The notes beneath the pieces are model-generated. The model ran no database searches. It was not told the DNA's origin and saw nothing but the letters and a program-made list of their open reading frames with translations. A DNA stretch of 64,000 nucleotides from Monilinia fructicola (taxonomy: Eukaryota > Ascomycota > Leotiomycetes > Helotiales > Sclerotiniaceae), in NCBI GenBank assembly GCA_008692225.1, contig VICG01000007.1, forward strand, positions 1,522,501 through 1,586,500. The letters are read 5' to 3'. The stretch's first letter is position 1. Each line of letters opens with the position of its first letter. Below are positions 36,458-51,235 of the stretch, piece after piece. Both the position numbers and the translations under genes were made by a program.

Positions 36458-38181
36458 TTACATCTTTTTTCCATGGACCTTCGCCTGAACCCCCTTTGAA
36501 TCCAGCCGAGCAGGATAGGAAACATGGAAATCATGCGTGAACTGCACATCACGAATATCCGTCTCAAAGAGCGTCATATCATATCTCGCAACAGCAGCGA
36601 GAGCCAAGAACATTTCCGCATGGGCCAAGTTAATACCAATACAATTTCTCGCTCCCTTGTTGAAGGCCATCTGGTATTTCTTGCGCTCGAGACCCTCGGG
36701 ACCCATCCATCTTTCTGGTCTGAAGGTCCAGGGATCAGGGAAGATCTTTTCGTCTGTATGGACTACCAGGGTTGTCTGACTGACGGGGGTTCCAGGTGGG
36801 ATTGCGTACTGTTTGTACTGTAAGGTTTCGTCGGGCGCAATACGACAGACGCGTGCCGTGACACCAAATGACAGTCTGTTGCCTTCTGCAATGCATCCGC
36901 TGAGATACGGCAATTGTTCGAGTTGTGACCATGATGCTGATTCTGGTACCGTATCTAGTTCGGCACGAAGCTTTGCCATACACTGAGGGTTGTTGAGGAG
37001 ATGAAAATGCGCAATAGCGATTGACTTTGCGGTAGATTCGGTGCCTATTAGGTTATTATTAGTTTCATGGAATTGTTCTTACTATCTTAGCAAGCTACAT
37101 ACCTGCCATGACGAGCAATGTTGCCTCATGTTCAAGACGCAAGGCACTTTTCTCAGCAGGTGGAAGACTTGGATTATCACGAAGCTCATAGAAGATCGAG
37201 CGTCTTTCGCCTTTGAGGAGATTATCCGTATCGCTCAAAACCTGATTAACTTCTTCTCGAATACTCTAGAGGTCCGTCAGAAGACGATACATAACAGATT
37301 ATTGGATGCAATACTGACATCAGTGAAAGCCACCATGTCCAGGGCACCTGGAGGCATGATATTTTTGGCTATTGGAAATGGTATCCGATCCAGAAGATCA
37401 AATAACCACGGGAAGTGTTGGTTGACTTTTACGCCCATCAATAATCTTGATATATTATTACGTTGGGTCGAGGCTTTTTCTTCGTCGTCGAGAAGATTAT
37501 TGTCATGCCCAAAGCTGTAGAACGAAAACGACACTATATCACTCTCAGCGTACAGTTCTTCAAACCAGACTATAGAGAAACTAACTCATTTGCAAATGCA
37601 AAATACACATCAAGTAAATTGACAGGTGTCCGCGTGGTTTCGTGGGCCGCAATCACTGCCACCAATTTCTCGACCTTTTCTTTGAGTACAGACTCAAAGT
37701 TTGAAACACTTTTTTTGTTGAAAAATGGATTAAGTGCTTCTCGACGTCTTCGATGAAGATCGTTTGGTATAGTTCCTCCGATCGACAAAGGTACTTTCAA
37801 GGTTCTCGTCTGAAAGGAATATTTCTCACGATTTCGAGAAGCTGGAGCATATATTTCGTCAAGGAATGTGACATCTTTGATATGAATCTCCCACGGTGTG
37901 ACTCGCACGATTGGACCTGAAGATTCAATCAATCAATACTCTTCATATGGCATAAATTGTGCATGAAGAGCATATTGCATACCATATATCTCGTGGAGAT
38001 CTCGAATGTGCCATACAAATTGACCTGGCTTGATCACATCGTAATAAAATTCATACCATGAGGTTAGAGCTGCCAAACGGGGACCCGGGATGTGCGAAAT
38101 GGGACTGAAGAACAATCTCCATAGAACGACGTAAATGATCTGTACGAGGACGAGACTGGCGATGAGTTCGAAAACTGCCAT
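36458..38181 (-). CDS. Cytochrome P450 monooxygenase (candidate RiPP-cluster oxidase)
   Basis: Five exons with introns 37917-37982, 37515-37585, 37266-37318 and 37045-37102, all GT-AG and phase-consistent; 491 residues, normal for the family. N-terminal anchor VFELIASLVLVQIIYVVLW, then the proline hinge HIPGPRLAAL. I-helix AGTESTAKS is assembled across the last intron. ExxR is EGNR; the PERF-like region is FRPERWMG; the heme loop is FNKGARNCIG with the Cys ligand. The PIVRVTPWEIHIKD block is typical of the fungal trichodiene-oxygenase-like/CYP58-type clade. It lies tandem to and downstream of the UstYa1 gene (426 bp apart). P450s accompany UstYa oxidases in dikaritin clusters, where they hydroxylate the cyclised peptide (established for ustiloxin). 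No frameshift. Confidence 0.93.
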
Positions 38182-38607
38182 CTTGTGTTGAAATCCTTCA
38201 GGCAATATTTGGGGATATCGGCTTTCAAAGCTATGAATTCTGTTAGCTATTTGAAAGTGGCTGACGGTTAGAACAGACAGCACGTTTAGTGAATCGGGCG
38301 GCAGCTCCGTTGCCTTCTATTCCTGCAATTCAGTGTAACCTTGGAACCTTGGAGCGTCCAGATCCAACATGATCTGTGCCACATATGCACATGCATGATA
38401 TAATGTTACGCCAATAAGGAGACACACAGAGATCTGCAACAAACGCTAATCAATCCATATATATATAATCTCTTCCGTACACCTCTAAAATCTTACATGT
38501 TCTCAACCTTGCATGTCTCATCGTCGACCTCTCGATCCTCTTGGCAATGCAACCTCCGTCTTCCGTCCGATACCGAGTATGCTGAATCAATCATCGTCAC
38601 ACAATTC

Positions 38608-39452
38608 TTACACCTTCAGTCCGTCGGTCCTTGCAACTTCGCAATGTCCAAAATGATCCAGGAGACTGCTTGGCTCGCCGTCACGGTAGCATGCAGAATG
38701 CTTACCAGCCCAATCACTAAGCGCGCTCCAATCTCTGCATTTGCGAAGCTGACCATCCCCAGTAGTATTCAATCCCCACGAATACAGGAGGGTGTCTCCT
38801 GCTGTGCATTGAATATATTGCCTGAAGTTATCAAAGCAGTGCGTGGAATGACCAATCGGATACGTCGACTTTTCCCCTCGAGCAAGTTCGTAAAATGTCT
38901 TGCGGACAATTTTCTGCATTCCCGTTAGAGAAATCAAAGGAGGATTTGAGGGCGCACGTACGAGACAGTGAAGTTGATGGTAAGCATCGATCACGTAAAC
39001 CCCCTTGCTTGGGTCATCCGGAAGGCTGATCGATTGCGGTAGCTCTTTTTGCGACGCCCAGGAATGATCCACGGCTACAATTCCGTGGGCGGGTATGATC
39101 TCTTCCCATAGTTGATCAACGGATTGTTGTGCTGTGCGAGAAGTCGAACTGTACCCTGACCACCAGGTATAGTTCTGGACGTGCAACCCAGAAGCTAAAT
39201 CAAGAGCAGCTCGAAGATGTCAGTGATAATGTGAATGTTCATGTTGAAGGACTTACGGTAGCCAAAATTCTCTTGGGTGGGGACATATCGTCTGTTGAAG
39301 GCACTGATGGAGGAAATTGCAGTTGAAAGTGCCAGAAGAACGATCAAGATATCTTTCATGGAGTTTGAAATGTACATTCGTGCAGATGTTTTCGGTCTAT
39401 CTGCATAACTTCCTCCATCCAAAGGAGTATACATAGGCTCTTGCGGTGCCAT
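38608..39452 (-). CDS. UstYa-family (DUF3328) oxidase 1
   Basis: UstYa proteins are oxidases that install ether or C-C macrocycles on fungal RiPPs (established for ustiloxin and asperipin). Three exons (introns 39195-39256 phase 1, 38914-38961 phase 0), 244 residues. One N-terminal membrane helix (ILIVLLALSTAISSISAFN); the remainder should face the lumen. Hallmark motifs: DAYHQLHCL (HxxHC) and, about 25 residues later, HSTHCFDNFRQYIQCTAG. Exon 2 is exactly 233 bp, as in the second UstYa gene, and the phase-0 intron falls directly after HQLHCL in both. Divergently transcribed from the SAT4-like gene through a shared 487-bp promoter. Confidence 0.92.
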
Positions 39453-39939
39453 GATGCGATGTGATGCAGAGTAGTGTAATTGACAGAAAGTTGAGTATAT
39501 TCAAAACCAAAGTTTACAGAATCTCACATTGTGCTTCAAAATATTTCAGGAGCTATTTGTTTAGTCACGTCCTGACAATGAATGCCTCGGCCTGATGCAA
39601 TTTCCAGGCCATTCTCCGCCGCCATTCAGGCCCTGTACTTTTCTGCTTACTTGGTGGGTTACACGCATACCTTCCAATTATAATGAATGGCAGGGTGAGC
39701 ACGGCACGTAGTCATCGTTCTCGTTGCACGAATGTGGCAATCCTGAAATGCTTTTCTAGTCAGCCTGAGCCTCTGGAGAGAGGCAGTCGCTCCTCTTGCC
39801 ATGTACACTTTTGGTTCTTACTTCCCCTTCTCAGGTCAAGTCACGAAGTTTCTGCTTCGCTGGGCGTTCGACACTTGAATCGCTTTTTATCAGCTTCTGG
39901 CCTCCACAGTATCACAGCTGTTCCTCAATACAATTGAAA
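39453..39939. promoter_or_regulatory. Bidirectional promoter between UstYa1 and the SAT4-like gene
   Basis: 487 bp. It contains GGCCTG at 39589-39594 and CAGGCC at 39605-39610 as an inverted repeat spaced by 10 nt, plus a third CAGGCC at 39627-39632. Spaced GC-rich inverted repeats are typical sites for dimeric Zn2Cys6 regulators. CAGGCC (44419) and GGCCTG (44654) recur upstream of UstYa2. A regulatory role is an inference; no cluster regulator gene lies in the window. Confidence 0.4.
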
Positions 39940-41194
39940 ATGTCAGGTTCCACTGCTGGGCCACCGGAAATCGATGATTTGGTGGCCACCTTCCACCCCG
40001 TCACGCCGTCATCAATCATCGCCGTTGGGGCTGTAATGCCCAGCTTGGCATTGATTGCAGTATCTCTTCGATTCTACGTCAAAGTCAAAAAGAGGACGGT
40101 TGGCTTGGATGACTGGCTCATACTTGTTGCTCTCGTCATTTGTTGTGCATTAGGAATTACTCTTATCGTTGGTGAGTCGAGCTGGATCTTTGAGGTCTTT
40201 TAGAGGAGCATTCAATGACTTTCAATCTATAGGATCTGCAGTAAAAGCTTTGGGACAACCGACGCCGTTAGGTGACGGGCCACTGGGATTCTTTCATGTG
40301 CTAAACGATGCTATTGTTACGACCGAGAAGGTATGTAGCCACGCGATGAGCTGGGCAAAATTCAGAACTAACGTTATCATTACGAAGATCAAATATGCTT
40401 TCAATCTTCTACAGATGATTGCATTCGGAGCGGTCAAACTATCGGTGTTATTCTTCTACAGAAGGATCTTTCGAGGAAAAATCTTCGACATCGCATCCTG
40501 GACGATGATTGGAGTAGTTCTAGTCTGGACCTTTGGATTCTTCTTCACCATGATGTTTGAATGTCGAACGGAGTTCTGGGCATTCTGGTCCACCCTCAGC
40601 GACCTCTTAACCCACTGTCTCGACGATGTCAAGTTCCAAAGAGTCCTGTCAATCTCGGACGTTGTCTCCGATATCCTCATTCTTCTCATCCCCATCCCCA
40701 TAATTTGGCAACTAAACTTGTCCATTGAGCGGAAAGTGGCTGTGTGTGGTGTGTTCCTAATGGGATCATTAGCGGTAGCTTTCGGAATTGTTCGTCTAGT
40801 AGTCTATGATAAGCGTCTCGGCGACGCATTCGCCGGATCCCAAGGGATCCTCCTTCTCTCGACGTGGTTCTATTGGAGTTTGATCGAAATGGGTATGGCA
40901 ATTGTAGCCGCCTGTCTCCCCACTCTAAGGCCACTCTTCGGTAGTTTGGGCACCTTCAGCAATCTTACCGAAGCGATTCGAAGTTTGTTTTCCATGCGAT
41001 CGCTCTCCTCTCAAGGCTCTTCACGACTCACCGGTAGAAGAAAGCCACAGGATGGCAGTAGAAAACTCAAGGATCAGCCTAACTTGTCGGAAGAACAGCT
41101 TGGGGCGGATCGCTTGGGTGAGCAGTATTCTATGCAGGACGTACGCCAAAATGGGATTTTAAAGAGTGATTCCTATTCAGTCACGGTAGTATGA
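39940..41194 (+). CDS. SAT4 / PTH11-like rhodopsin-domain integral membrane protein
   Basis: A fungal seven-helix protein of the SAT4 (PF20684-type) family; family members include PTH11-like receptors and proteins found in secondary-metabolite clusters. Start ATG 39940. Introns 40172-40232 and 40331-40387 give 378 residues. Helix regions include IIAVGAVMPSLALIAVSLRFYV, DDWLILVALVICCALGI, LLQMIAFGAVKLSVLFFYRRIF, WTMIGVVLVWTFGFFFTMMF, SDVVSDILILLIPIPIIWQL and VCGVFLMGSLAVAFGIVRL. The motifs GLDDW, LFFYRRIF and SDVVSD.LLLPIP are characteristic. A charged tail of about 70 residues follows helix 7. The second intron is 57 nt and stop-free, so retention would add 19 residues in frame. Lying between a UstYa and the precursor gene, it may sense or handle the product. 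Confidence 0.9.
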
Positions 41195-42900
41195 CGAAGA
41201 GAGTCATTATTGTTTGGTCACGGTACTATAATGGAAAGTGTAGAGTATTGTGATTGTCATTTATATACTGTGTAACCAGAAGATTACTCAATCTCCTCTT
41301 TGCTGTGATTCCAAGGGCCGGGTGGTCATTAGACACACCAACACCGATGAAATAAGCGTCACATGCGAAATGATATTCCCCTCCTCCCAAGGTCCCCCAG
41401 CTAGCTCTTCAAGATTTTCTTGCACTTTTCACGTAAAACTCATAACACCAGCGCCGTCCCCATATGTAATGCCAAACGAAAACCAGGGCTGACGTGAGAT
41501 TATGCTTAAAGCCCGTCTCCAAGGTTTCCGCACCTCGTAAGTGTACCCCGGCAATTGGCCGCTCGGTTGACGTACCTTGCCCAAAGAAACTGGAGGGTTG
41601 CACAACTACCGGGCTAACAAGGACTCGGCAGAATCACTACCCTGCGAAAACATTTTCTTTGGACGAAAAGTATGCGTGGTGATATAAAATAGCACTTTTG
41701 TTCGGCGACTGGTACATGCGGCGTCAGAATGAATCTTACGTGATGATGAAGTAAATTGCGATGGGTGGTGCTGAAGTGAAGATTTCGATTGATCTGGTTG
41801 GTTGCTTGGTTGTATTTTTGGTAGAGTTCATATGGTCTCAACTATTGCATATTACAGCCGAAAGCTTGACGTAGATGTGGTGCGACTCCAACTTTGAAGC
41901 TATCATCCCAAGTCCGTAAAATAAGCCTCTGGGTTCGTTCCACCACACGAATCGAAGTCCTGTACCTTGGAAAATGACTACTAATCAGCAACTTCCTCTC
42001 GGCGAAATTCCCCACGTCCTATTGGATCCACACTCCGAAAGACTCACCTCTGGGCAACGGTTTTGGGATTTAGGTGACGGCGGCACGGAGCGAATCAATG
42101 CACATCATCAGCCGTGACAATCGTATCATTGCCATCGTAGACGCTGGTGGCTTGGGACCATCAGCCCTTTTTCTGGAAGCTGCTCCAGAATGTTGATGCC
42201 GCCGCATCGGTGCGAGTACACGTTGCATATAATGCAGCTGCGCACGTTTGCATGGGGATCTTGCAGACTATCTGCAGGTGTTGAAGGTGGACAATCTTAG
42301 ATTAAGCACGATCGTGGGAGCCAGCAGGGGATAAAACGTGCGGAGAGACAAAGGGGGAAACTTCTACATTATAGTTTGGGATGAAGAATTATGATCTAGG
42401 CATGGCAACTTTAGTAGACGAGGTCTTGACGTTTTGGCAGCGGTGAGCTCTCGTGATTACTTGTGCCTCATGGTAGCATTGATATCATCAATAGCATACC
42501 ATTGCATGGCAGCCTTCGGAGTTCAGTCACATTACCAGTAATAACCCGCTTGGAAATACCTCGGGACTTGTGTACCCGATGCCTGAGAAAGGAGAGAGGC
42601 ACAGCTGGAAGAAGATCTGAATGGTCGGAGATGTCACCATAGGGGAACAAACTCCTGAGTCATTCCGTAAGCCGGGGGCTGTGATAAACAATCAAGAAGC
42701 TTTCTACTTATATCTAATGATCCGAGCTGAGGATCGTCGTTCTGCTTCCCCTCGCTTCATCACACCATCATCGCGAATCGTCGATACTGATCTTGATATT
42801 AGACAAGAATTCTTTCTACTCCAACCCAATACAGATAATACTGTTTCCAATATTCCAACTCCCAAGACACTCCTCCACGATCTTCCTCCTCACTGTCAGA
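41195..42900. other. Intergenic upstream of the RiPP precursor
   Basis: 1.7 kb without a supported gene; includes the precursor promoter. No inverted-repeat operator like the one at 39589 was found here by eye. Confidence 0.5.
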
Positions 42901-43352
42901 ATGCAGCTCATCAACATCTTCATCATGTCTCTCGGTCTCAGCGCATATGCGACACCAGGTACGTTCCCCCACGCCCCCTCCAACAAATACCCTACTAACG
43001 AGCCCCAGTCCCCGTCGCAACGCCCAACAACGGCGCAGTTGCGATCCCCAACGCAGACGGCACCAGCGACACGGCCGAACTATGGAAGAAAGGCAACGCG
43101 CCTGTGGCAATCCCCAACGGAGACGGATCAGCAGACACGGCCGAGTTATGGAAGAGGGGGAACGGGGACGTCGGCATTCCCAACGGCGATGGAACCTCCG
43201 ATGCCGCCGAGCTGTGGAGGAAAGCCAACGGGGCCGTGGAGATCCCCAACGCGGACGGCACCAGCGATGCTGCCGAGCTGTGGAAAAAGGGGAATGGGGC
43301 CGTCGGCCTTCCGAACGGGGATGGAAGTGAAGATATCGCGGAACTTTGGTAA
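42901..43352 (+). CDS. Secreted tandem-repeat RiPP precursor peptide (UstA-like, Kex2-processed)
   Basis: 133 residues from two exons; intron 42959-43008 (GTACGT...CCCAG, branch CTAAC) separates the signal peptide (MQLINIFIMSLGLSAYATP) from the repeats. Five tandem 22-residue units follow, consensus NGxVxIPNxDGxSDxAELW plus a basic pair: KK, KR, RK, KK, and then the stop directly after the fifth AELW. Invariant: V, P-N, DG, D and AELW. Variable: the residues flanking V and after PN. Secretory signal, exact repeats and dibasic sites are the architecture of dikaritin precursors such as UstA. There is no Tyr, Phe or Cys in the units, so the Trp is the only aromatic crosslinking candidate. DNA copies differ mostly at synonymous sites, implying selection on the protein. 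Not an alpha-pheromone, since no WCxxxGQxCW is present. Confidence 0.85.
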
Positions 43353-44862
43353 GAGGGTGGAAGGACGTAGAGGGGATGCATGAGGGAGAGGGGCAGAGAT
43401 GGTTCTTTTTTTATGCTATTCGTCACGGCGTGCTGATTCTTAAATCATAAAAGGATGGGTTGATAAATTGTATTAAATCTGGGTTGACAATATTGGAAGC
43501 TGCCCGTTTCCTCACAACGTTGAACTAAAATCATCCCCCGATTCCAATATTCGATACAGACACCAGCTGTGGTGTTGGAGCTGGGGATACCACTTGCGAT
43601 GCTTTGTTTCTCTACTCTATTATAGAAAACCACTTCTTTCCTGACCTTCAGAAGACCATCATTTCCAAAGCTCTAATGTGAAATCCCTCAAAACCCCTTT
43701 TGAAGCATCCCTCGAACCTCCGCCCCTCCCCAAATTCCAACACACAAACCCACAAGTCCCGCACAAGAAAAATCCCCCATCAGGAAACCCCTCAAAAACA
43801 CCACCATCCGATCTTCATCCCAACACCCCCTACCGCCAGCCAAGAAACCGCCCCAAGAAAATAACCCTGACTAAATCTCCGCACCCACCCATACATCACG
43901 AAGCTTACGAACCTCACACGCAAGATAACGTAAGCCCGCACCAAACACAGCCAATGAGCACCAACCCAGCCCCTCCAGCCCTGCCGGTCTATAATTAGTT
44001 CCAGGGCTCCACTCACTCATTAGCACTTGGCTTGCAAAGCTGTGTGCATCCAAGGATATACGCCCTCGAGGCTGTATGCAGAGTCCCCGACTCGTAGCTG
44101 AGGATTACGGTGCAGGTAGGCACAGATGTTCAACGCAGACCGCATTCCCGATGGGGCGACAAAGTGCTGCAACGCATGTATCCGCCCGCTCTGCAGTTTC
44201 CCAGAACACGGCGACGCGAAAAGGGGGAGGGAAGAGGAAGATCCCCAGCGTCACACCCCCATCAGAATCGTCATCCCGGCCAAACGCCAAGCCGCAAGCG
44301 TCGATGTGCCGAGGTGGCAAAAGATACTCCCGCTAGTCATCGAAGCATGTGCATTGTACATGTCAGCCCGAAACGCGACCTCGTTATCGTCAGCCCGGGC
44401 GTTGCAGCGCCGTGCGTGCAGGCCCCTGTGATGGTTAATTGGCAATGGAGAGTAACAGAAAGGAAGAAGGATTGGGGCTGAGGCCTTATCAACGTCGTCT
44501 GATACCTGCGCACCCAGTCCAACGTCGAAAGTGTAAAAGACGCCTTACCGGGCCCCCAAGGCACAGAATCAATAGATCCATGTGAGAAAGCAAGCCAGCC
44601 TCGGTCTCGCATCATCGTCACCATCGTCATCCACGCAAATATCCTTGTTCCCGGGCCTGAATATTTTCCGCAGTTGGTTGTGCACTCTTCTCTCCTCTCT
44701 TCTCTCCCTTCATCCATCTCAGCATATTAGCAAAAGAAAATAGGAATTTCCATCCGTTCATCTCCCATCTACATTCGTCCATCCATTCATTCTCTCCTCC
44801 CCAAGATCCCATCAAATCAACCCTCGACCACTAATCCCATCACCTGACCACGCTTTACAAAG
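43353..44862. other. Intergenic between precursor and UstYa2
   Basis: No gene recognised. Open frames at 43678-43998 (Pro/Lys/His-rich) and 44076-44480 lack motifs. CAGGCC at 44419 and GGCCTG at 44654 lie in the UstYa2 promoter, followed by a CT/CA-rich leader. Confidence 0.5.
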
Positions 44863-45793
44863 ATGGCCTCATACGAAGACTCCGAAACCCCACGATGGTC
44901 CAAAGAAGATGCCGAACAAAGTCTCCTCTCAAACAACGAGCGCTCAACCTCAACCTCGCAAGCCAGAAACCACCCCGGCATACTCCTAGGCCCCAAACAC
45001 TATATCCTCTTAGGCCTCTCATTCCTCTTCATCAGTCTCACGAGCGGATTCAGCGTGTACGTCCTCATGAGCCTGACGCAGCTAAAGTCGCTGCACAATA
45101 TGGATCCGCATGCCGATGGTAAGGAAGTGTTTTATTTCTCTATCGCCTAGCGCTGGAAGGCGAGGGATGAAGCGAGCCCCCCAACTAACATCCCTGTGAA
45201 TGCCAGCAAGTCTGTCGACGGTCGATCAAACGTACCAGAAACTACACACCTACACCGATTTCAGCTCGCCGGATGATGCCGTCTCCGCTGCAGCGTGGGA
45301 TCGATATGTCGTGAATGGGTTTGTCGCGTTGCCGCACGCGTGGGCGCGCGATCGTGGGTGGCCGCTTGGTCGTGACATGCCTGGGGATGGCGAGAAGGGG
45401 ATTTATGTGGTGGATGGCTTTCATCAGTTGCATTGTCTCGTAAGTTCGTCCTGGACGCGTCATATCCCCTCACATGCCCTCCCGCAAGCTTCGCATCTCC
45501 CACCCCCATTCTCAAACTCACACCCGCAGATGTCGCTCCGCACCGAAACCCTCGCTATTATAGACGGAGCCCCGGTCAAGAACCTCACGCACACGAAGCG
45601 CCATCTGAACCACTGTTACGATGCGCTGCGACAAGCCATCATCTGTCGCGCTGATCCCACGCCTCTGTATGTACCTAAGGATACGTTTTTTGCGGGAGAT
45701 GGGCAGGAGCGACAGTGTAAGAGTTGGAAGGGGTTGGAGGAATGGGTGGTGGGGCATAGTATTTGTTATAATGGGGTTGAGTGTGAGGAATAG
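44863..45793 (+). CDS. UstYa-family (DUF3328) oxidase 2
   Basis: Second RiPP-type oxidase. Three exons: introns 45119-45206 (phase 1) and 45440-45529 (phase 0); 250 residues. Cytosolic N-terminus, then a membrane helix (YILLGLSFLFISLTSGFSVYVL). Luminal domain: WDRYVVNGFVALPHAWA, VVDGFHQLHCL (HxxHC), and after the intron HLNHCYDALRQAIICRADPTP; C-terminal WVVGHSICYNGVECEE. The architecture matches UstYa1 in exon number, both intron phases, intron position and a 233-bp exon 2, while protein identity looks low, indicating old paralogues. Two UstY-type enzymes (UstYa and UstYb) act in ustiloxin biosynthesis, so the pair fits a cyclisation role on the precursor 1.5 kb upstream. Confidence 0.92.
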
Positions 45794-50384: not shown

Positions 50385-51235
50385 ACAAGAAGTAAATATT
50401 AAATAGTAAATATTAAATAGTTAATAATAAATAATAAATAATAAATAATAAATAATAAATAATAAATAATAAATAATAAATAATAAATAATAAATAATAA
50501 ATAACGAATAATAAATAACGAATAATAAATAACGAATAATGAATAACGAATAATAATAACGAATAACGAATAATGAATAACGAATAATGAATAACGAATA
50601 ATGAATAATGAATAACGAATAATGAATGAATAACGAATAATGAATAACGAATAATGAATAACGAATAATGAATAACGAATAATGAATAACGAATAATGAA
50701 TAACGAATAATGAATAACGAATAATGAATAACGAATATGAATAACGAATAATGAATAACGAATAATGAATAACGAATAATGAATAACGAATAATGAATAA
50801 CGAATAATGAATAACGAATAATGAATAACGAATAACGAATAACGAATAACGAATAACGAATAACGAATAACGAATAACGAATAACGAATAACGAATAACG
50901 AATAACGAATAACGAATAACGAATAACGAATAATGAATAACGAATAATGAATAACGAATAATGAATAACGAATAATGAATAACGAATAATGAATAACGAA
51001 TAATGAATAATAATAATGAATAATAAATAATGAATAATAAATAATGAATAATAAAATAATGAATAATAAATAATGAATAATAAATAATGAATAATAAATA
51101 ATGAATAATAAATAATGAATAATAAATAATGAATAATAATAATGAATAAATAAATAATGAATAATAAATAATGAATAATAAAATAATGAATAATAATAGA
51201 TGATAAATAATAGATGATAATATTAATATAAAATT
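50385..51235. repeat. ~850 bp minisatellite built on AATAAYG heptamers
   Basis: Starts as AATAAAT heptamers and changes to a 14-nt higher-order unit AATAACGAATAATG repeated dozens of times. It then has a homogeneous block of about 18 AATAACG units (about 50825-50930), returns to the 14-nt unit, and ends as AATAAATAATG variants. Occasional single-base slips occur. Non-coding. Confidence 0.96.

What the first reader, a model, noticed from the sequence alone, without database searches (positions are those of the whole stretch)
36458..45793. Candidate novel fungal RiPP (dikaritin-type) biosynthetic cluster
Five genes lie within 9.3 kb: P450, UstYa1, SAT4/PTH11-like membrane protein, secreted Kex2-type repeat precursor and UstYa2. 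A repeat precursor together with UstYa oxidases is the defining combination of ustiloxin-class RiPP clusters (established knowledge). All five genes are intact. The core sequence is unlike the ustiloxin, phomopsin or asperipin cores I know, so the product is probably undescribed. No cluster regulator, FMO or peptidase is visible, so it is either a minimal cluster or depends on general Kex2 processing.
Basis: partly seen in the sequence, partly recalled or inferred. Interest (0 to 1): 0.95.

Follow-up and report, generated by a model that had tools for sequence, protein, structure and literature searches.

The report
Fungal repeat-peptide cluster with UstYa oxidases
The brown-rot fungus Monilinia fructicola carries a small, intact set of genes that probably makes a secreted peptide in several copies and then alters it with copper-type oxidases; the peptide itself looks undescribed, but the kind of gene cluster is a known one.

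Summary
At 36458-45793 lie five intact genes: a P450, a UstYa (DUF3328) protein, a SAT4/fungal-rhodopsin membrane protein, a precursor with five 22-residue Kex2-type repeats, and a second UstYa. The genome is Monilinia fructicola. The one precursor search found relatives only in M. laxa, M. vaccinii-corymbosi and Ciborinia camelliae. In M. laxa and Ciborinia the UstYa2 orthologue lies within three locus tags; the third case is undecided. Eleven of 19 repeat positions are invariant in 17 units from four species, and silent changes far exceed amino-acid changes, so the peptide is under selection. Best reading: a UstYa-modified, Kex2-released peptide (RiPP). It is dikaritin-like only in the broad sense: the repeats hold no tyrosine but one tryptophan each, and no tyrosinase, S41 peptidase or Zn-cluster regulator was found in the window. 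It is not exceptional here: four of 16 other UstYa loci also have repeat ORFs beside them. Membership of the P450 and SAT4 genes is plausible, unproven. A resemblance to an EF-hand/lanmodulin metal loop is a weak, after-the-fact lead. New member of a known kind.

The parts
36458..38181 (-). Cytochrome P450 gene, 5 exons, 491 aa; membership of the cluster plausible but not shown
   Evidence: Model; PF00067 E 1e-42; motifs; the six best-scoring paralogue pieces in the genome are 36-45% identical
38608..39452 (-). UstYa1 (DUF3328) gene, 3 exons, 244 aa, one hydrophobic helix (31-53), HxxHC at 138 and 165
   Evidence: Model; PF11807 E 2.2e-23
39940..41194 (+). SAT4/PTH11-like (Fung_rhodopsin) multi-pass membrane protein, 3 exons, 378 aa; membership uncertain
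   Evidence: Model; PF20684 E 3.6e-46; several hydrophobic stretches
42901..43352 (+). Repeat precursor, 2 exons (42901-42958, 43009-43352), 133 aa: short hydrophobic N-terminus with an A-x-A site, then five 22-residue units
   Evidence: Model; relatives; no Pfam family at E<=0.001
43029..43349 (+). Five repeat units NxxVx[IL]PNxDGxxDxAELW separated by KK, KR, RK, KK; the last ends at the stop codon
44863..45793 (+). UstYa2 (DUF3328) gene, 3 exons, 250 aa, one hydrophobic helix (47-72), HxxHC at 158 and 188
   Evidence: Model; PF11807 E 9e-25; EYC84_002568 in the public annotation

Best explanation
A small RiPP gene cluster. The precursor enters the secretory pathway, its repeats are oxidised by one or both membrane-anchored, copper-type UstYa enzymes (inferred from the family) on the lumen side, and Kex2 cuts at the dibasic pairs to release several near-identical peptides of about 20 residues ending in ...AELW, which are secreted. 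The invariant tryptophan is the only aromatic residue in the unit and is the most likely, but unproven, site of a cross-link or other oxidation. The P450 may add a further oxidation and the SAT4-type protein may serve transport or sensing; both are guesses from position. Shown here: gene structure, repeats, motifs, conservation of the repeat, closeness of precursor and UstYa2 in two relatives. Inferred: secretion, cleavage, modification, product.
For: Intact genes and motifs. Unit under purifying selection: pooled pS 0.76 vs pN 0.16 over the five M. fructicola units; 11 of 19 positions invariant in 17 of 17 units from four species, repeat number 3 to 5. Meets the published repeat-number and dibasic-site criteria of a Kex2-processed repeat protein. 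Published: where UstYa genes accompany such precursors they lie on average 3.09 genes away, and mating-factor precursors are almost never so accompanied (PMC7329392). The DUF3328 protein CctR is a membrane-anchored binuclear copper oxidase with HxxHC(x)nHxxHC (PMC12435403). The model of a relative (P0006) puts the two motifs on two helices after one long N-terminal helix, at low confidence overall (mean pLDDT 61). P450 and a PTH11-type GPCR also sit in a putative T. reesei RiPP cluster (PMC7099791).
Against: No tyrosine in any of 17 units, whereas it is called mandatory in the three UstYa-cyclised products (PMC7329392); tryptophan content is not raised in UstYa-linked precursors (20.5% vs 24.5%). 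No UstYa2 hit from M. vaccinii-corymbosi, which has the precursor, and no precursor hit from M. fructigena, which has a UstYa2 piece. The Ciborinia UstYa2 models, as annotated, lack the second HxxHC. No Monilinia or Ciborinia protein among 15 UstYa1 hits, though M. fructicola itself is missing there too, so this says little. 10 of 13 dibasic sites are KK or RK, weaker Kex2 sites than KR (recalled; counts). No signal-peptide program was run, and the N-terminus did not reach the hydropathy cut-off. No expression or product data.
Confidence: 0.7

Rival explanations
1. The precursor yields plain, unmodified secreted peptides (a signal or an effector-like peptide), and the UstYa genes beside it serve another product.
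For: 78% of 7878 known repeat precursors have no UstYa gene among the 15 nearest genes (PMC7329392); no tyrosine in the units; M. vaccinii-corymbosi has the precursor without a UstYa2 hit.
Against: Two UstYa genes flank it here; closeness to UstYa2 kept in M. laxa and C. camelliae; mating-factor precursors are almost never beside UstYa; no alpha-factor Pfam match at E<=10 in four orthologues.
Confidence: 0.2
2. The P450 and SAT4 genes are chance neighbours, and the true cluster is only precursor plus UstYa2 (and perhaps UstYa1). This is compatible with the best explanation and concerns its extent.
For: Only precursor and UstYa2 could be traced to relatives (P450 and SAT4 were not searched there); P450 within 10 kb of UstYa at 3 of 17 loci is only mildly above random (324 of 20000 simulations reach it); the closest SAT4 paralogue is not beside a UstYa gene.
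Against: SAT4 genes lie within 10 kb of 6 of 17 UstYa loci (0.59 expected on uniform placement; 0 of 20000 simulations reach it), against 6 of 71 P450 loci not beside UstYa (Fisher p 0.01); UstYa, SAT4 and P450 lie together at two more loci; a putative T. reesei RiPP cluster has both a P450 and a PTH11-type GPCR (PMC7099791).
Confidence: 0.4
3. The repeat is a decayed or low-complexity stretch without a product.
For: No M. fructicola protein among the three precursor hits, so the gene seems unannotated.
Against: pS 0.76 vs pN 0.16, 11 invariant positions over four species, open frame ending exactly after the last unit.
Confidence: 0.03

Closest known systems
Dikaritins (ustiloxins, phomopsins, asperipin-2a)
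   Same: Precursor with repeats between dibasic sites, UstYa (DUF3328) genes next to it; a P450 is also in the ustiloxin B cluster (PMC6941272)
   Different: No tyrosine in the unit, no tyrosinase and no S41 peptidase found in the window; 22-residue acidic unit unlike YAIG, YVIG or YVIP or the asperipin core (recalled)
Kex2-processed repeat proteins with DUF3328 neighbours (Umemura 2020, PMC7329392, passages)
   Same: At least 3 repeats of 8-100 aa between KR/KK/RK/RR; UstYa nearby
   Different: This unit gave only three database hits, all from Monilinia or Ciborinia; whether it is in that paper's supplement could not be checked
Cyclochlorotine UstYa-type enzyme CctR
   Same: Same enzyme family and double HxxHC
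   Different: It hydroxylates a non-ribosomal peptide, so DUF3328 chemistry is not always cyclisation and the reaction here is open (PMC12435403, passages)
Sclerotinia sclerotiorum putative RiPP cluster on chromosome 3 (PMC6941272, passages)
   Same: A related fungus, paired DUF3328 genes
   Different: Not compared in sequence here; its precursor is not given in the passages seen

Membership tests
Dikaritin, broad (DUF3328 as class-defining enzyme) | UstYa/DUF3328 protein with two HxxHC motifs | tested here: met
   Both genes; definition in PMC12048977
Dikaritin, broad (DUF3328 as class-defining enzyme) | Repeated cores in a precursor gene next to it | tested here: met
Dikaritin, broad (DUF3328 as class-defining enzyme) | Signal peptide on the precursor | tested here: inconclusive
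   Hydrophobic start with A-x-A site seen by eye; no 19-residue window reached the cut-off; no signal-peptide program available
Dikaritin, strict (five-gene definition cited in PMC12048977) | Tyrosinase in the cluster | tested here: not met
   13 PF00264 matches in the genome, 0 in the window
Dikaritin, strict (five-gene definition cited in PMC12048977) | Methyltransferase in the cluster | not tested
   None among the 20 window proteins or ORFs scanned; no family search run
Dikaritin, strict (five-gene definition cited in PMC12048977) | Multiple DUF3328 proteins | tested here: met
   Two
Dikaritin, strict (five-gene definition cited in PMC12048977) | Transporter or peptidase | tested here: inconclusive
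   3 S41 matches in the genome, 0 in the window; an OPT transporter starts 7.2 kb beyond UstYa2 but past an inositol phosphatase gene
Ustiloxin/phomopsin/asperipin chemistry | Tyrosine in the core, needed for the known cyclisation | tested here: not met
   0 of 17 units contain Y; W in 17 of 17
Kex2-processed repeat protein | At least 3 tandem repeats of 8-100 aa between KR, KK, RK or RR | tested here: met
   Five units, sites KK, KR, RK, KK; criteria
Alpha-factor-type pheromone precursor | MF_alpha or related Pfam match | tested here: not met
   No such match at E<=10 in four orthologues (HMMER's filters drop most weak matches)
EF-hand / lanmodulin loop | Asp at loop position 1 and hydrophobic residue at position 8 (PROSITE PS00018, recalled) | tested here: not met
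   0 of 17 and 1 of 17 units; the other positions are met in 16-17 of 17

The most novel reading that the evidence does not exclude
The released peptides are metal binders. Each unit carries [IL]-P-N-x-D-G-[TSG]-x-D-x-A-E-L-W, which lines up with the metal loop of EF-hands and, through the proline at loop position 2 and Asp at position 9, with lanmodulin (loop numbering recalled; the aligned lanmodulin letters are). The first ligand, Asp 1, is replaced by Ile or Leu; a UstYa hydroxylation could supply a missing ligand. This would be a ribosomal fungal metallophore made by copper oxidases.
Probability: 0.07. Interest if true: 0.8.

Novelty: new member of a known kind. Interest (0 to 1): 0.4.

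Why it matters
It adds a peptide family, found so far only in Monilinia and Ciborinia, to the fungal RiPP candidates, in a crop pathogen whose published cluster lists, in the passages I saw, name no RiPP class. It offers a clean test of whether UstYa enzymes work on units that have tryptophan but no tyrosine. It also shows that one brown-rot genome holds at least five UstYa loci with a dibasic repeat ORF beside them.

Tried and rejected
UstYa-adjacent SAT4 genes as a special subfamily: not supported, the best paralogue of the SAT4 here (38% identical over part of it) is not beside a UstYa gene. UstYa + SAT4 + P450 loci on C12 and C5 as copies of this cluster: only weak similarity (26-41% in pieces; the P450 matched at L015 only, 32% over 87 residues; neither UstYa protein matched at L015), and no repeat ORF in the ~10 kb seen at either.

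Lanmodulin match: E 0.0013 and 0.0021 for the window's precursor against the PDB, 0.046-0.052 with a four-sequence profile, 0.054-0.063 with the Ciborinia protein (its only two hits), 0.063-0.065 with the M. vaccinii-corymbosi protein. The M. laxa protein was not run alone. Against it: designed TIM barrels score better with two of these four queries (0.0018, 0.0003-0.0011) and come next with the first (0.092). As controls I ran 2 of the 4 other repeat ORFs of this genome: one hit a designed repeat protein at 0.013, the other had one hit at 0.17. So repeat-against-repeat scores are inflated. No EF-hand family appeared in Pfam at E<=10. The idea came after seeing the sequence.

PDB search with UstYa2: no relative at E<=1. 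P450 PDB hits are general P450s, mostly of mammals (60 of 248 shown). The structure model is of a relative, P0006, not of the window protein, and is weak. A random-region control for the repeat scan could not be run (see below); the rest of the window gave no further repeat precursor.

Rows dropped or merged: 30 UstYa, 111 SAT4 and 98 P450 exon matches were merged by hand into 17, 78 and 74 loci. The lengths of contigs C2, C10 and C15 were guesses, and that of C7 was taken from a database contig length. A 9-residue periodic ORF in L024 was not counted, because 7 residues lie between its dibasic sites, under the published minimum of 8. Frame and strand echoes of the same arrays were counted once. 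The first unit list skipped alternate units and was replaced. The first UstYa1 model used a wrong donor site and was replaced.
Full report
WHAT IS THERE. The region 36458-45793 holds five genes with clean splice models and intact family motifs: P450, UstYa1, a SAT4/fungal-rhodopsin membrane protein, a repeat precursor and UstYa2. Among the ORFs I scanned, the next ones outward with a known family are a short-chain dehydrogenase at about 31.5-32.2 kb and an inositol monophosphatase at 46.9-47.7 kb. Within the window no tyrosinase, S41 peptidase or Zn-cluster regulator match was found.

WHOSE GENOME. UstYa2 matches EYC84_002568 of Monilinia fructicola (95% over 95% of its length, by eye identical up to a differing C-terminal model). 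The genome held is 44.03 Mb in 20 contigs. The database contig of that protein, 2,592,823 bases, fits between the lengths of contigs C6 and C8, the window being on C7. The public UstYa2 model ends differently from mine; 15 of 18 aligned relatives keep the cysteine-rich end that my model has, all but P0004 (that public model), P0005 and P0015, so the public model is probably wrong there.

THE PRECURSOR. 133 residues: a short hydrophobic start with an A-x-A site (judged by eye; no 19-residue window reached the hydropathy cut-off), then five units of 22 residues. Dibasic pairs KK, KR, RK, KK separate them, and the last unit stops at its tryptophan. In a word-based search of 5.8 billion proteins three relatives passed, in M. 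laxa, M. vaccinii-corymbosi and Ciborinia camelliae (3 of 4357 candidates). None is the M. fructicola protein, so the gene is probably not annotated. In its own genome it is single. The M. vaccinii-corymbosi protein has a like N-terminus; the M. laxa and Ciborinia models begin differently and lack it, probably annotation errors. Seventeen units from four species share 11 of 19 positions without exception: N1 V4 P7 N8 D10 G11 D14 A16 E17 L18 W19. Tryptophan is the only aromatic; there is no Tyr, Phe, His or Cys. Between the five units of this gene pS is 0.76 and pN 0.16: silent sites are near saturation while the peptide is kept.

THE NEIGHBOURS IN RELATIVES. M. vaccinii-corymbosi: precursor, but no UstYa2 hit. 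M. fructigena: a UstYa2 piece, but no precursor hit. So 2 of 3 relatives with the precursor keep the pair and one is undecided. This rests on locus tags and contig lengths; I did not see the DNA. For UstYa1 no Monilinia or Ciborinia protein was among 15 hits; as M. fructicola's own protein is missing too, that is not evidence of absence.

HOW COMMON IT IS IN THIS GENOME. Of 17 UstYa loci, five have a tandem dibasic repeat ORF within the ~10 kb looked at: this one and C3:3521.3-3521.7k, C14:222.1-222.7k, C6:545.6-545.8k and C1:2437.8-2438.2k. Two of the other four have tryptophan and no tyrosine in the repeat. With a published mean of 5.25 repeat precursors per ascomycete strain, about 0.02 would fall within 5 kb of 17 loci in 44 Mb by chance (my arithmetic). 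I have no random-region control of my own. SAT4 genes are near 6 of 17 UstYa loci, against 0.59 expected on uniform placement. P450 loci serve as a fairer yardstick, and there the figure is 6 of 71 (p 0.01). The uniform model is too generous because secondary-metabolism genes cluster.

HOW IT WORKS. Shown in the literature: the DUF3328 protein CctR is a membrane-anchored binuclear copper oxidase, proposed to face the organelle lumen (PMC12435403; passages), and DUF3328 proteins are needed to cyclise ustiloxins, phomopsins and asperipin-2a, where tyrosine is mandatory (PMC7329392; passages). Inferred here: the repeats meet one or both UstYa enzymes in the secretory pathway, are oxidised, perhaps at Trp19, and are freed by Kex2. 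Which bond is made, and whether the two UstYa proteins act as a pair, is open.

WHAT IS KNOWN. Papers on Monilinia clusters: PMC8070815 counts 31 in M. fructicola, classed as polyketide, non-ribosomal, terpene and indole; PMC8959702 counts 18 across three species; PMC8988988 gives 39 clusters in M. fructicola with classes from terpene to 'other'. The passages seen (12 of 15 places, 6 of 6, 7 of 7) name no RiPP class. Searches: Monilinia with RiPP, 12 papers listed; two or more of Monilinia, ribosomally synthesized, RiPPs, Kex2, fungal-RiPP, 25 of 1340 listed. No listed title is on a Monilinia RiPP; only listings were seen apart from the papers named. PMC7329392 names Monilinia once, in its type G-2 of repeat precursors. 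A newer Botrytis cinerea paper lists many fungal-RiPP-like regions (PMC13290904; passages), so such calls are now made in this family of fungi. Detection rules may explain why this cluster was passed over: antiSMASH asks for a peptidase beside DUF3328 (PMC12048977; passages), or in version 5.0 for phomopsin- or ustiloxin-like queries (PMC7099791; passages).

VERDICT. The kind is known; the peptide family looks undescribed within what I could search. The metal-loop resemblance is kept as a lead only.

Noticed in passing
L014:8269-8700 (C3:3521268-3521699): Repeat ORF with unit DADTAIVYPAEKRAK, about 2.8 kb from a UstYa gene; the array runs on in a second reading frame.
   Followed up: partly
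L016:6891-7532 (C14:222090-222731): Repeat ORF with LLYGYGQ units between dibasic sites, about 1.7 kb from a UstYa gene; it also seems to run into a second frame near its end.
   Followed up: partly
L018:7068-7262 (C6:545567-545761): Repeat ORF with unit DADDVVKNAWSAKR, tryptophan but no tyrosine, about 1.4 kb from a pair of UstYa matches.
   Followed up: partly
L020:1995-2411 (C1:2437794-2438210), - strand: Repeat ORF with units EAAPWDEKRWDEKR, about 2.3 kb from a UstYa gene.
   Followed up: partly
G000, 6 of 17 UstYa loci: SAT4/fungal-rhodopsin genes are found near UstYa loci more often than near P450 loci. The one paper search on this (10 papers) showed no report of it in its listing; passages of two more of them, opened for this, gave only a putative T. 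reesei RiPP cluster that holds a PTH11-type GPCR.
   Followed up: partly
window 42901-43352 and 44863-45793: Precursor and UstYa2 have higher third-position GC (0.72 and 0.63) than six other window genes or ORFs (0.42-0.53).
   Followed up: no
window 50423-51193: Long AT-rich minisatellite, about 27 copies of a 28-bp unit.
   Followed up: no
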